A stretch of 64,000 nucleotides of DNA, taken from positions 388,861 to 452,860 of the forward strand of contig NZ_JAOEEA010000003.1 of the NCBI RefSeq assembly GCF_029837695.1. Reading direction: 5' to 3'. Numbering within the stretch: position 1 is the first letter of the stretch; every line of letters starts with the position of its first letter. Below the pieces are notes generated by a model. It saw nothing but the letters and a program-made list of their open reading frames with translations, was not told the DNA's origin and did not search any database. Below, piece by piece: positions 42,059-56,311 of the stretch. The stretch comes from Pseudomonas sp. GD04019 (GTDB taxonomy: Bacteria; Pseudomonadota; Gammaproteobacteria; Pseudomonadales; Pseudomonadaceae). Both the position numbers and the translations under genes were made by a program.

Positions 42059-42074
42059 ATTTCGTATATGATAT
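42059..42074. promoter_or_regulatory. GntR operator copy 1 (own promoter of the GntR gene)
   Basis: ATTTCGTATATGATAT keeps the left half ATTTCGTA of the shared palindrome exactly and 6 of 8 positions of the right half. It lies 32 bases before the GTG start of the GntR gene, consistent with autoregulation. The other copies are at 50366 and 56298. Confidence 0.65.
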
Positions 42075-42105
42075 TCGCATCAATAAGCCGACTCGGTGAC
42101 GCGCC

Positions 42106-42777
42106 GTGCCCCTACCTCGTTTCAATGCTCCCAACCTGGGAATAGCGCCCGCCGCATCCGAGGTCATCGCCAAGCACCTGCGCGACGCAATCATCTCCGG
42201 GCATTTCGCCGAGGACGAGCCGATCCGCCAGGACGACATCGCCCAGCTGTTCAACGTCAGCAAGATCCCCGTGCGCGAGGCGCTCAAGCGCCTGGAGGCC
42301 GAGGGCCTTGTGCTGTTCCAGCGCAACAAGGGCGCGGTGGTCACGCGCATCTCCGAGCCGGAGATGGCGCAGATGTTCGAAGTGCGCGTGCTGCTGGAAA
42401 TGCGCGCGATCCGCCTGGCGGTACCGAACATGAGCGAGGCCACCTTCGCCGCCGCCGAACGCATCTGCGAGGCCTTCCTTGGCGAGGAAGACGTCGGCCG
42501 CTGGGCCGAGCTCAACTGGCAGCTGCACGCCTGCCTCTACGAGCCGGCGCAACGGCCGTTCCTGGTCAACCTGATCCGCTCGATCCACGACAAGCTGGAG
42601 CGCTACCTGCGCATGCAGATGAGCCTGTCCGAGGGCAAAGACCGCGCCGACCACGAGCACCGCGAAATCATCGCCGCCTGCCGCGCCGGCGACGCCGAGA
42701 CCGCCGCCCGGCTGATCGAGGAGCACATCAACGGCGTGTGCCAGACGCTCTACGAGCACCTGCCCAATCGCGTCTGA
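42106..42777 (+). CDS. GntR-family regulator (FadR subfamily, FCD domain), probably of hydroxyproline use
   Basis: A 223-residue regulator with a winged helix (about 17-80: VIAKHLRDAIISGHFAEDEPIRQDDIAQLFNVSKIPVREALKRLE) and an all-helical FCD effector domain (about 90-215) with conserved metal/ligand His positions (ELNWQLHACLYEP, DHEHREIIAAC). The start is GTG 42106; no in-frame ATG lies near the helix-turn-helix start. It is the first gene of the hydroxyproline island and stands 100 bases before the epimerase. Palindromes matching a FadR-type operator lie before it and before two catabolic operons. Confidence 0.88.
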   Translation: MPLPRFNAPNLGIAPAASEVIAKHLRDAIISGHFAEDEPIRQDDIAQLFNVSKIPVREALKRLEAEGLVLFQRNKGAVVTRISEPEMAQMFEVRVLLEMRAIRLAVPNMSEATFAAAERICEAFLGEEDVGRWAELNWQLHACLYEPAQRPFLVNLIRSIHDKLERYLRMQMSLSEGKDRADHEHREIIAACRAGDAETAARLIEEHINGVCQTLYEHLPNRV

Positions 42778-42877
42778 GGCTGTGCCGATTTCGTCATAGC
42801 GTCGACGGAAATGGCTCAAGCCGCCGACCTCGTTCCGGCGGCACCCTTGCCGAAACCATTCAGCGGCAGGGGCCTGC

Positions 42878-43813
42878 ATGCAACGTATCCGTGTACTCGA
42901 CTCGCACACCGGTGGCGAACCGACTCGCCTGGTTCTCGAAGGCTTCCCCGATCTCGGCACCGGCAGCATGGCCGAGCGCCGCCAACTGCTGAGCGAGCGC
43001 TTCGACCAGTGGCGCGCCGCCAGCGTGCTGGAGCCGCGCGGCAGTGACGTGCTGGTCGGCGCCCTGCTGTGCGAGCCGGTCGACCCGAGCGCCTGTGCCG
43101 GAGTGATCTTCTTCAACAACACCGGCTACCTCGGCATGTGCGGCCACGGCACCATCGGCCTGGTGGTCTCCCTGGCGCACCTGGGTCGCATCGGCCCCGG
43201 CGTGCACAAGATCGAGACGCCGGTCGGCACCGTCGAGGCGACCCTGCACGACGACCGCTCGGTGAGCGTGCGCAACGTGCCGGCCTACCGCTACCGCAAG
43301 GCGGTCGCCGTTGATGTGCCGGGCCATGGCCAGGTAGCGGGCGATATCGCCTGGGGCGGCAACTGGTTCTTCCTGATCAGCGATCACGGCCTGCGCGTGG
43401 CCGGCGACAATCTCGACGCCCTTACCGCTTATTCCGTGGCCGTGCAGCAGGCCCTGGAAGACCAGGGCATCCGTGGCGAAGACGGCGGCCTGATCGACCA
43501 TATCGAGCTGTTCGCCGATGACGCGGAGGCCGACAGCCGCAACTTCGTGCTTTGTCCTGGCAAGGCCTACGACCGCTCGCCCTGCGGCACCGGCACCAGC
43601 GCCAAGCTGGCGTGCCTGGCGGCAGACGGCAAGCTGCAGCCGGGCCAGCTGTGGCGCCAGGCCAGCGTGATCGGCAGCCAGTTCGAGGGCAGCTACGAGA
43701 ACACCGATGGTGGTCGCATCATCCCCACCATTCGCGGCCGCGCGCATATCAGCGCCGAGGCCACCCTGCTGATCGAGGCGGACGACCCGTTCGCCTGGGG
43801 CATTCGCCTGTGA
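42878..43813 (+). CDS. lhpA: 4-hydroxyproline 2-epimerase (proline racemase family, Cys/Cys)
   Basis: Converts trans-4-hydroxy-L-proline to cis-4-hydroxy-D-proline, the first step of the pathway. The 311-residue protein has both catalytic cysteines of the superfamily: Cys88 in LGMCGHGTIG and Cys236 in DRSPCGTGTSAK. The N-terminal DSHTGGEPTRLV is typical of hydroxyproline epimerases. It overlaps the next gene by GTGA and so is translationally coupled to the D-hydroxyproline dehydrogenase subunits that consume its product. Confidence 0.94.
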   Translation: MQRIRVLDSHTGGEPTRLVLEGFPDLGTGSMAERRQLLSERFDQWRAASVLEPRGSDVLVGALLCEPVDPSACAGVIFFNNTGYLGMCGHGTIGLVVSLAHLGRIGPGVHKIETPVGTVEATLHDDRSVSVRNVPAYRYRKAVAVDVPGHGQVAGDIAWGGNWFFLISDHGLRVAGDNLDALTAYSVAVQQALEDQGIRGEDGGLIDHIELFADDAEADSRNFVLCPGKAYDRSPCGTGTSAKLACLAADGKLQPGQLWRQASVIGSQFEGSYENTDGGRIIPTIRGRAHISAEATLLIEADDPFAWGIRL

Positions 43814-55093: not shown

Positions 55094-55129
55094 CCCCCTC
55101 TCCCCCTGGGAGAGGGCCGCGGTGAGGGA
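55094..55129. repeat. Family-1 palindrome between the ATPase gene and the racemase-family gene
   Basis: CCCCCTCTCCCCCTGGGAGA then GGGCCGCGGTGAGGG. Single copy in a 69-base spacer, so the following gene may still be co-transcribed. Confidence 0.8.
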
Positions 55130-55161
55130 ACTACAGGCCCCTCGCGATACAGGAGAAACAC

Positions 55162-56199
55162 ATGCGTTCGAGCAAGGTCATCCATGTGGTCAGCTGCCAC
55201 GCCGAGGGCGAGGTTGGCGACGTCATCGTCGGCGGCGTCGCGCCGCCGCCGGGCGCCACCCTGTGGGAACAGTCGCGCTGGATCGCCCGCGACGAGGAGC
55301 TGCGCAATTTCGTGCTGAACGAGCCGCGCGGCGGCGTGTTCCGTCACGTCAACCTGCTGGTGCCGGCCAAGGACCCGCGGGCGCAAATGGCCTGGATCAT
55401 CATGGAGCCGGCCGACACGCCGCCCATGTCCGGCTCCAACTCGCTGTGCGTGTCCACCGTGCTGCTCGACAGCGGCATCCTGCCGATGACCGAGCCGGAG
55501 ACCCGCCTGGTGCTGGAAGCACCGGGTGGTCTGATCGAGGCCGTGGCCCAGTGCGAAGGCGGCAAGGTGCAGCGGGTGGAAGTGAAGAACGTGCCGTCCT
55601 TCGCCGACAGGCTGGACGCCATGATCGAGGTCGACGGCCTCGGCAGCCTCAGGGTCGACACCGCCTATGGCGGCGACAGCTTCGTCATCGCCGATGCGCG
55701 CGCCCTGGGCTTCTCGCTGACCGCCGACGAGGCCGCCGACCTGGTCGCCACCGGCCTGAAGATCACCCGCGCGGCCAACGAGCAGCTCGGCTTCGTCCAT
55801 CCGCTGAACAAGGACTGGGCGCACATCTCGTTCTGCCAGATCGCCGCACCGGTGGAGCGCATCGACGGCGTGCTGACCGCCGCCAACGCGGTGGTGATCC
55901 GCCCCGGCAAGATCGACCGCTCGCCCTGCGGCACCGGCTGCTCGGCGCGCATGGCCGTGCTGCACGCCAAGGGCCAGATGCAGGCCGGCGAACGCTTCGT
56001 CGGCCGCTCGATCATCGGCTCCGAATTCCACTGCCGCATCGACTCGCTGACCGAAGTCGCCGGGCGCGCGGCCATCTATCCCTGCCTGTCCGGCCGGGCC
56101 TGGATCACCGGCACCCACCAGCACCTGCTCGACCCGAGCGACCCCTGGCCGCAGGGCTATCGGCTATCCGATACCTGGCCGGTCGAGCTGCAGCTGTAA
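55162..56199 (+). CDS. Proline racemase family enzyme with Ser/Cys active site
   Basis: A 345-residue member of the proline racemase superfamily. The first catalytic Cys is replaced: Ser90 in PPMSGSNSLCV, where the epimerase above has MCGHGT. The second is kept, Cys256 in DRSPCGTGCSARM. Superfamily trans-3-hydroxyproline dehydratases usually combine Cys with Thr, so this Ser/Cys form fits neither class cleanly; Ser/Cys members have been reported with hydroxyproline epimerase and/or dehydratase activity. By context (ABC importer, aconitase-X, deaminase, reductase) it acts on a hydroxyproline isomer. The start follows AGGAGAAACAC. Confidence 0.85.
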   Translation: MRSSKVIHVVSCHAEGEVGDVIVGGVAPPPGATLWEQSRWIARDEELRNFVLNEPRGGVFRHVNLLVPAKDPRAQMAWIIMEPADTPPMSGSNSLCVSTVLLDSGILPMTEPETRLVLEAPGGLIEAVAQCEGGKVQRVEVKNVPSFADRLDAMIEVDGLGSLRVDTAYGGDSFVIADARALGFSLTADEAADLVATGLKITRAANEQLGFVHPLNKDWAHISFCQIAAPVERIDGVLTAANAVVIRPGKIDRSPCGTGCSARMAVLHAKGQMQAGERFVGRSIIGSEFHCRIDSLTEVAGRAAIYPCLSGRAWITGTHQHLLDPSDPWPQGYRLSDTWPVELQL

Positions 56200-56297
56200 C
56201 ACCCGTTTTGAAGAGTTGAAAACCGCCGCCTCGCCGGCGCACTGAACCGGGCACCGGCCCAACCCGATGGAAACAAGGGTGTAGAACGACCCTTTGC

Positions 56298-56311
56298 TTT
56301 CGTATACGAAA
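56298..56311. promoter_or_regulatory. GntR operator copy 3 (deaminase/dehydrogenase promoter)
   Basis: TTTCGTATACGAAA is a perfect 14-base palindrome 31 bases before the deaminase start. It is the best copy of the three and defines the core TCGTATACGA. Confidence 0.8.

What the first reader, a model, noticed from the sequence alone, without database searches (positions are those of the whole stretch)
42059..56311. Three copies of one palindrome (core TCGTATACGA) tie the island's GntR regulator to two catabolic operons
ATTTCGTATATGATAT before the GntR gene, AATATCGTATACGAAATT before the importer/aconitase-X operon and TTTCGTATACGAAA before lhpC share an 8-base half-site. Each lies 30-50 bases from a start codon. 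The pattern is what an autoregulated FadR-type repressor of hydroxyproline use would leave. A weaker half-site pair (ATTTCGTC 42788, GACGGAAAT 42804) stands before the epimerase gene.
Basis: partly seen in the sequence, partly recalled or inferred. Interest (0 to 1): 0.72.

Follow-up and report, generated by a model that had tools for sequence, protein, structure and literature searches.

The report
Repressor switches dividing a hydroxyproline cluster
In this Pseudomonas genome three near-identical palindromes, the only close matches in its 4.8 million bases, sit just in front of a GntR-type regulator gene and of two hydroxyproline-use operons, and they are likely the switches through which that regulator shuts off itself and those operons, while a neighbouring AraC-type regulator likely reads a different repeat in front of the other hydroxyproline genes.

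Summary

Comparison ties it to GntR. Of 149 genus genomes, 46 of 48 with this GntR and 0 of 101 without it carry the strict palindrome; 64 of the latter have the cluster's AraC protein. The operon copy is identical in 56 of 56 loci, on the predicted start of a conserved sigma-54-type promoter.

The 'weak' site before the epimerase is not GntR's: it belongs to another element, conserved in 66 of 66 loci, found in 101 of 111 AraC+ and 0 of 38 AraC- genomes.

So two regulators likely split the cluster, which fits published P. aeruginosa induction: cis-3-hydroxyproline induces aconitase X but not lhpA or the reductase (PMC5144071). A P. aeruginosa HypR hydroxyproline gene set is in print (PMC9023270), so the core idea is probably not new. 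Binding, inducer and direction of control are untested.

The parts
42059..42074 (.). palindrome 1, predicted GntR operator before gntR; its second half reads TATGAT, a -10-like hexamer
   Evidence: 77 of 80 loci have it with 4 or fewer mismatches; GTATA and the final TAT invariant in those 77
42106..42777 (+). GntR/FCD regulator (223 aa)
   Evidence: PF00392 60.7 bits, PF07729 FCD 96 bits; AlphaFold model from 20 sequences, best pLDDT 85.6 (five models 85.6 to 56.2), matches FCD regulators
42878..43813 (+). lhpA, 4-hydroxyproline epimerase
   Evidence: PRK13970 568 bits, cutoff 442
43810..44919 (+). lhpB, FAD oxidoreductase (D-hydroxyproline dehydrogenase beta, by homology)
44912..45148 (+). 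lhpF, 2Fe-2S subunit
   Evidence: PF13510
45145..46401 (+). lhpE, FAD/NAD(P) oxidoreductase subunit
49379..50131 (+). AraC-type regulator with PAS domain (LhpR-like)
   Evidence: PF12833, PF08448; 78% identical to the AraC gene at the same place in a P. aeruginosa strain
50346..50359 (+). sigma-54-type -24 GG / -12 GC promoter (GG 50346-50347, GC 50358-50359); predicted start near 50371
   Evidence: GG-N10-GC ends 7-9 nt before 62 of 64 copies of ATATCGTATACGAAAT; consensus recalled
50367..50382 (.). palindrome 2, predicted GntR operator, about -4 to +12 of the sigma-54-type promoter
   Evidence: all 16 bases identical in 56 of 56 loci
50434..51252 (+). periplasmic solute-binding protein
   Evidence: PF00497
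51272..53044 (+). [quoted passage not shown]
   Evidence: NF051439 882.7 bits, cutoff 700
53048..55092 (+). two ABC permeases and ATPase
55162..56199 (+). [quoted passage not shown]
   Evidence: NF047722 646.9 bits, cutoff 550
56297..56312 (.). palindrome 3, predicted GntR operator before lhpC
   Evidence: 3 of 5 loci that hold this lhpC type have it with 4 or fewer mismatches, 2 (L068, L079) do not
56343..57278 (+). lhpC, DHDPS-family deaminase (73% identical to a gene beside the hyp-like genes of S. meliloti pSymB)
57367..58950 (+). lhpG, aldehyde dehydrogenase
   Evidence: PF00171; no NCBIfam match at 1e-40
59176..60183 (-). [quoted passage not shown]
60235..60275 (-). second copy of the AraC-type element, before lhpD

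Best explanation
The three palindromes are predicted to be the operators of the GntR/FCD protein encoded at 42106-42777, which would repress its own gene, the importer/aconitase-X/trans-3-hydroxyproline-dehydratase operon and lhpC-lhpG by sitting on their promoters, and would let go when a hydroxyproline breakdown product accumulates. Shown by sequence comparison: in the genus the strict palindrome occurs only in genomes with this GntR, at fixed places before the same genes. At gntR its second half coincides with a -10-like hexamer; at the importer operon it covers the predicted start point of a sigma-54-type promoter. Also shown: a different element precedes lhpA and lhpD and tracks the AraC+PAS protein, so that protein is the likely reader there. 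Inferred: binding itself, repression, and the inducer. The inducer I consider most likely is a delta-1-pyrroline-2-carboxylate (plain from 3-hydroxyprolines, 4-hydroxy from 4-hydroxyproline), because the regulator sits with 3-hydroxyproline genes in Pseudomonas and near proline-racemase-family dehydratase genes in the alphaproteobacterial loci seen, but with 4-hydroxyproline genes in Acinetobacter. The result would be two-key control: GntR gates uptake and dehydration for any hydroxyproline isomer, and AraC gates the 4-hydroxyproline oxidation branch and the reductase.
For: Own genome: 3 copies, all here. Genus: strict palindrome in 46 of 48 GntR+ genomes and 0 of 101 GntR- genomes, 0 of 64 with AraC but no GntR; the backward control pattern in 0 of 149 (Fisher p 1.6e-36, ignoring relatedness). 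The two GntR+ exceptions, G097 and G107, have a GntR 62-63% identical and five variant palindromes each in 16 kb. Aconitase X occurs in exactly the same 46 genomes. Conservation: 56 of 56 loci before the importer operon, 77 of 80 before gntR. Genome G120 (AraC 79% identical, lhpABFE, no GntR) has the AraC-type element and no palindrome; G073 and G130 have GntR, aconitase X and palindromes in 15-18 kb stretches without lhpABFE or araC, though both have an AraC relative elsewhere. GT and AC two bases apart is the spacing reported for HypR sites (PMC4494728, passages). Published: in P. aeruginosa PAO1 LhpI (aconitase X) is induced by trans-4-L-, cis-4-D- and cis-3-L-hydroxyproline, LhpA and LhpH (reductase) only by the first two (PMC5144071, section 10). 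Another P. aeruginosa strain has the same layout of both elements.
Against: No binding or expression data for this protein were available. In both Acinetobacter loci the palindrome stands before lhpC, and the genome or record has no trans-3-hydroxyproline dehydratase orthologue (best match 30%), so the regulon is not simply the 3-hydroxyproline branch. Genome G023 has a 74% identical trans-3-hydroxyproline dehydratase but no GntR and no palindrome. Three of 80 loci lack a recognisable gntR site. Fifteen of the 46 palindrome-bearing genomes have only one strict copy. With 1 mismatch allowed the 14-mer also occurs in 18 GntR- genomes, two of which (G019, G055) keep the TCGTATACGA core; but the backward control occurs in 21 of 149, so this is background. 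Genomes are related, so counts are not independent events. The sigma-54-type promoter needs an enhancer-binding activator that I did not identify. PAO1 itself was not examined.
Confidence: 0.75

Rival explanations
1. The AraC+PAS (LhpR-like) activator, not GntR, reads the palindrome.
For: Its gene lies directly upstream of the importer operon, and a P. aeruginosa AraC protein, LhpR, is said to activate lhp genes on binding hydroxyproline (PMC6608401 passage).
Against: 0 of 64 AraC+ GntR- genomes have the strict palindrome; G120 with a 79% identical AraC has none; the AraC protein tracks a different element, 101 of 111 against 0 of 38.
Confidence: 0.04
2. GntR reads the palindrome but acts at the importer operon as an activator or dual regulator, or senses a 3-hydroxyproline only.
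For: Position alone does not prove repression; 46 of 48 GntR+ genomes have aconitase X and no GntR- genome does; in the annotated alphaproteobacterial loci seen, the orthologue lies by proline-racemase-family or annotated trans-3-hydroxyproline dehydratase genes.
Against: The site covers the predicted start or -10 region, a usual place for a repressor; 4-hydroxyproline also induces aconitase X in P. aeruginosa; in Acinetobacter the palindrome stands before lhpC with no 3-hydroxyproline dehydratase orthologue.
Confidence: 0.17
3. The weak pair before the epimerase gene is a fourth GntR site.
For: ATTTCGTC resembles one half-site.
Against: 0 of 66 loci have the palindrome there with 4 or fewer mismatches; the same letters belong to an element conserved in 66 of 66 loci that persists in GntR-free genomes.
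Confidence: 0.02

Closest known systems
HypR regulons of Proteobacteria (Leyn et al. 2016, PMC5343134; passages and section 8 read)
   Same: GntR-family regulator, autoregulated in many genomes, predicted to control hydroxyproline enzymes and in some taxa the ABC importer and 'citrate isomerase' hypX; reconstructed from conserved sites.
   Different: Founded on S. meliloti HypR; the GntR gene beside the hyp-like genes of S. meliloti pSymB is only 27.5% identical over 178 residues to this one, and Rhizobium TAL182 carries one of each sort. The RegPrecise motif lists were not available to compare.
HypR iModulon of P. aeruginosa (PMC9023270, passages)
   Same: A hydroxyproline gene set of P. aeruginosa already carries the name HypR; that study used a RegPrecise-based scaffold.
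   Different: The passages give neither gene nor site; I could not see whether it is this GntR.
LhpR, AraC-family activator of P. aeruginosa (Li and Lu 2016, not held; known here from citing papers)
   Same: An AraC+PAS gene at the same place, 78% identical to that of a P. aeruginosa strain.
   Different: Here it goes with a different DNA element, before lhpA and lhpD, not with the palindrome.
HypR of Streptomyces coelicolor (PMC6608401, passages)
   Same: FadR-subfamily GntR repressor of hydroxyproline genes and of itself; its site covers the -10 region of its own promoter.
   Different: Its motif CTNTGC(A/C)ATGTCAC does not resemble this palindrome.

Membership tests
GntR regulators, FadR/FCD subfamily | GntR winged-helix domain | tested here: met
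   PF00392, 1.1e-16
GntR regulators, FadR/FCD subfamily | FCD ligand domain | tested here: met
   PF07729, 3e-27; fold matches to PmiR, VanR and TM0439
GntR regulators, FadR/FCD subfamily | palindromic site with GT and AC 2-3 nt apart | tested here: met
   GTATAC centre in sites 2 and 3; site 1 of the window reads GTATAT, its orthologues GTATAC in 51 of 77; rule from PMC4494728 passages
GntR regulators, FadR/FCD subfamily | binds DNA and releases it with a ligand | not testable with these tools
   needs protein
HypR (S. meliloti type) | orthologous to S. meliloti HypR | tested here: not met
   27.5% over 178 aa; separate GntR present in Rhizobium TAL182. The pSymB record is unannotated, so which gene is HypR rests on its place beside hyp-like genes and on recall
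HypR (S. meliloti type) | controls hydroxyproline genes and itself | tested here: inconclusive
   sites are in place; control itself untested
HypR regulog of Pseudomonas in RegPrecise | same protein and same motif | not tested
   database and supplements not available; a HypR set in P. aeruginosa is named in PMC9023270
LhpR | AraC domain with PAS domain beside the importer operon | tested here: met
sigma-54 promoter | -24 GG and -12 GC at 10-base spacing, conserved | tested here: met
   62 of 64; consensus recalled
sigma-54 promoter | enhancer-binding activator and its site | tested here: inconclusive
   conserved block GCTYCYTTNTGTRACACC about 145 bp upstream, 44 of 62 with 0 or 1 mismatch; the NtrC-like pattern tried did not exceed shuffles

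The most novel reading that the evidence does not exclude
One hydroxyproline cluster is run by two regulators with separate DNA codes. A GntR/FCD repressor that senses delta-1-pyrroline-2-carboxylates clamps the start point of a nitrogen-controlled sigma-54 promoter, so the importer and both 3-hydroxyproline dehydratases open for any isomer. An AraC/PAS activator opens only the 4-hydroxyproline oxidation genes and the pyrroline reductase. This would explain why cis-3-hydroxyproline induces aconitase X but not lhpA or the reductase in P. aeruginosa, and so is used slowly.
Probability: 0.45. Interest if true: 0.6.

Novelty: new member of a known kind. Interest (0 to 1): 0.45.

Why it matters
It assigns the promoters of a widespread hydroxyproline cluster to two regulators from sequence alone. 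The split matches published isomer-specific induction in P. aeruginosa, which the section I read of that paper reports without naming a regulator. It makes the inducer and the isomer logic directly testable, and it names an operator lying on a sigma-54-type start point. The regulator-motif pair itself is probably already implied by an existing HypR regulon prediction, which limits the surprise.

Tried and rejected
Rejected: the weak epimerase site as GntR's. Rejected: AraC as reader of the palindrome. Rejected: GntR as orthologue of the GntR beside S. meliloti hyp-like genes. Weakened: a pure 3-hydroxyproline regulon. Led nowhere: an NtrC-like and a CbrB-like pattern (both recalled) upstream of the importer operon did not clearly exceed shuffles; no clear -35 box at site 3 (by eye); a paper search by PAO1 gene numbers; a look for the LhpR paper (not held). 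A phylum-wide search of 398 genomes found the GntR in only 8, own genome included, so distant loci came mostly from the plasmid collection and are hand-picked.

Choices that shape counts: one search kept the best 80 of 114 relatives. One search used those 80 plus the window and dropped rows without the gene or without 220 bases before it, leaving 80 (gntR), 56 (importer), 66 (lhpA) and 5 (this lhpC type). One search aligned at most 27 hand-picked loci (26, 24 and 27 usable). One search used 14 chosen loci. One search used the window and 20 GntR+ genomes, 19 of them chosen for having two strict sites, so it says nothing on how often site 3 is present; its script read three rows (L142, L145, L147) in the wrong direction. 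E-value cut-offs differ (1e-60 for GntR and AraC, 1e-80 for lhpC, 1e-100 for the two dehydratases). The cross-tables rest on lists I copied from the answers into scripts. The shuffles keep single-base content only, and its block pattern was read off the same sequences.
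Full report
What was checked. The three palindromes are present at the stated places. In the window they exceed chance (3 against 0.22 expected). In the whole 4.83 Mb genome they are the only matches to TTTCGTATACGAAA with up to 2 mismatches, all within 14.3 kb. With the symmetric 16-mer and 3 mismatches, two further places appear elsewhere; one lies inside long reading frames, the other in a 3 kb stretch where my script found no frame of 150 aa or more.

Genes. 42106-42777 encodes a GntR/FCD protein. [quoted passage not shown] lhpC and lhpG follow, and lhpD (Ldh_2) on the other strand.

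Who reads the palindrome. Of 149 genus genomes, 48 encode the GntR, 111 the AraC protein, 70 this type of lhpC, only 10 of them GntR+, 46 aconitase X and 48 trans-3-hydroxyproline dehydratase. TWTCGTATACGAAAT occurs in 46 (backward control 0 of 149). All 46 are GntR+, at 73% identity or more, and they are the same 46 that have aconitase X; 44 of them have the trans-3 dehydratase. No genome of the 101 without GntR has the palindrome, including 64 with the AraC protein. The two remaining GntR+ genomes, G097 and G107, have a 62-63% identical GntR, five variant palindromes each in 16 kb, and a 74-75% identical trans-3 dehydratase. Against a perfect link, G023 has a 74% identical trans-3 dehydratase without GntR or palindrome, and G134 a 48% one.

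A looser search, the 14-mer with 1 mismatch, hit 64 of 149 genomes. The 18 beyond the strict 46 are all GntR-. Sites of 15 of them are listed: in 13 the change falls inside TCGTATACGA, in two (G019, G055) the core is intact and an outer base differs; three were cut from the list. The backward control hits 21 of 149, so this is background.

Three genomes separate the two regulators. G120 has a 79% identical AraC and lhpABFE but neither GntR nor palindrome. G073 and G130 have GntR, aconitase X and palindromes in stretches without lhpABFE or araC, and an AraC relative with its own element elsewhere in the genome. Genomes are related, so the Fisher values overstate the evidence.

Conservation and position. 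Among the best 80 of 114 named relatives of the GntR plus the window, the importer-operon site is the same 16 bases in 56 of 56 loci where that gene's upstream region was held; the gntR site is present with 4 or fewer mismatches in 77 of 80; before lhpA it is present in 0 of 66. In the gntR site the second half reads TANNAT in 72 of 77 (T, A and T in all 77), a -10-like hexamer, which would explain why that half is conserved while the first three bases vary. In front of the importer operon, GG-N10-GC stands 7-9 bases before 62 of 64 copies of ATATCGTATACGAAAT; of the two others, L057 17022 is at the site-3 position and L045 20362 lies just after the ATPase gene near the end of its locus. TGGCAC-N5-TTGC is the sigma-54 type (recalled). 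In the window, GC at 50358-50359 puts the start near 50371, inside the palindrome. A further block, GCTYCYTTNTGTRACACC, lies about 145 bases upstream. In P. aeruginosa PA14, ntrB and ntrC mutants lower lhpH 16.9- and 9.7-fold (PMC8264665, passages); that lhpH there is the aconitase-X gene is my recall of that naming, and PMC5144071 uses LhpH for the reductase.

Site 3 stands before lhpC. In the window this is a deaminase 73% identical to one beside S. meliloti hyp-like genes. In 18 readable rows (window included) have that type after the palindrome and 13 a different DHDPS-family protein (see also for L102). The gene changed while the site stayed. In the named loci, 3 of 5 upstream regions of the window's lhpC type have the palindrome.

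The fourth site. The letters before lhpA belong to TGTGCCGATTTCGTCAT-N11-AAANNNNTCAAGC, present at one geometry in 66 of 66 loci (first part with 3 or fewer, second with 1 or no mismatches). It also stands in five stretches without GntR (L101, L106-L109; four of them from GntR-free genomes, L109 from G130), in Acinetobacter L127, and before lhpD in the window. With up to 3 mismatches in the shorter form it occurs in 101 of 111 AraC+ genomes and 0 of 38 AraC- genomes. In a P. aeruginosa strain it stands before lhpA (1 mismatch) and, more weakly, before lhpD (5 mismatches; next best place 14). It is the likely LhpR site; the LhpR paper itself is not held.

Outside the genus. Orthologues 59-63% identical sit on Rhizobium, Pararhizobium, Peteryoungia, Agrobacterium and Paracoccus plasmids, near proline-racemase-family or annotated trans-3-hydroxyproline dehydratase genes and often an Ldh_2 gene (L123 and L124 are unannotated and were read by tblastn). 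ATATCGTATACGATAT-like sites stand there too; the 14 loci hold 37 with 3 or fewer mismatches against 0.4 in shuffles, six of them perfect. In the two Acinetobacter loci a perfect palindrome precedes lhpC, and no trans-3-hydroxyproline dehydratase orthologue was found (best match 30%). So the inducer is likely something both branches make; I favour a delta-1-pyrroline-2-carboxylate. That is inference.

An outside test. In P. aeruginosa PAO1, LhpI (aconitase X) is induced by trans-4-L-, cis-4-D- and cis-3-L-hydroxyproline, whereas LhpA and LhpH (there the pyrroline-2-carboxylate reductase) respond only to the first two (PMC5144071, section 10; passages). Another P. aeruginosa strain has palindromes before gntR, the importer/aconitase-X operon and the deaminase gene, and the other element before lhpA and lhpD; PAO1 itself was not examined. 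The promoter assignment made here from sequence fits that split.

Known or new. HypR regulons in Proteobacteria are in print (PMC5343134), HypR sites have GT and AC two bases apart (PMC4494728, passages), and a P. aeruginosa iModulon for hydroxyproline is named HypR (PMC9023270, passages). I could not see RegPrecise. The regulator-motif pair is therefore probably already predicted. In searches I saw no listed paper that describes the two-element split or the sigma-54 overlap, but most of those papers I saw only as listings.

Noticed in passing
window 47050-49287: An M14 zinc carboxypeptidase with a GEVED domain sits between lhpE and araC; five of the closest relatives have it there (L004, L005, L008, L009, L011) and others (L007, L010) do not, so it looks like a recent gain or loss.
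   Followed up: partly
window 56297-57278; L102 9808-10764; L095 35858-36809: The same palindrome precedes two different kinds of DHDPS-family deaminase in different Pseudomonas species: the gene was exchanged under a kept operator.
   Followed up: partly
window 50219-50236; conserved in relatives: A block GCTYCYTTNTGTRACACC about 145 bases upstream of the importer-operon palindrome is conserved and could be an enhancer-binding activator's site; its reader is unknown.
   Followed up: partly
L121 (Agrobacterium vitis plasmid), whole locus: Seven palindromes of this kind in 16.7 kb around a GntR orthologue, with two annotated trans-3-hydroxyproline dehydratases, an M20 peptidase and three solute-binding protein genes: a larger version of the regulon.
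   Followed up: no
window 41102-42043: The LysR gene upstream of gntR stands divergent from pyruvate carboxylase genes, as in relatives, and is probably their regulator rather than part of the hydroxyproline cluster.
   Followed up: partly
G000 C12:68276-68291 (L099): A 3-mismatch palindrome in a 3 kb stretch where no reading frame of 150 aa or more was found; not explained.
   Followed up: no
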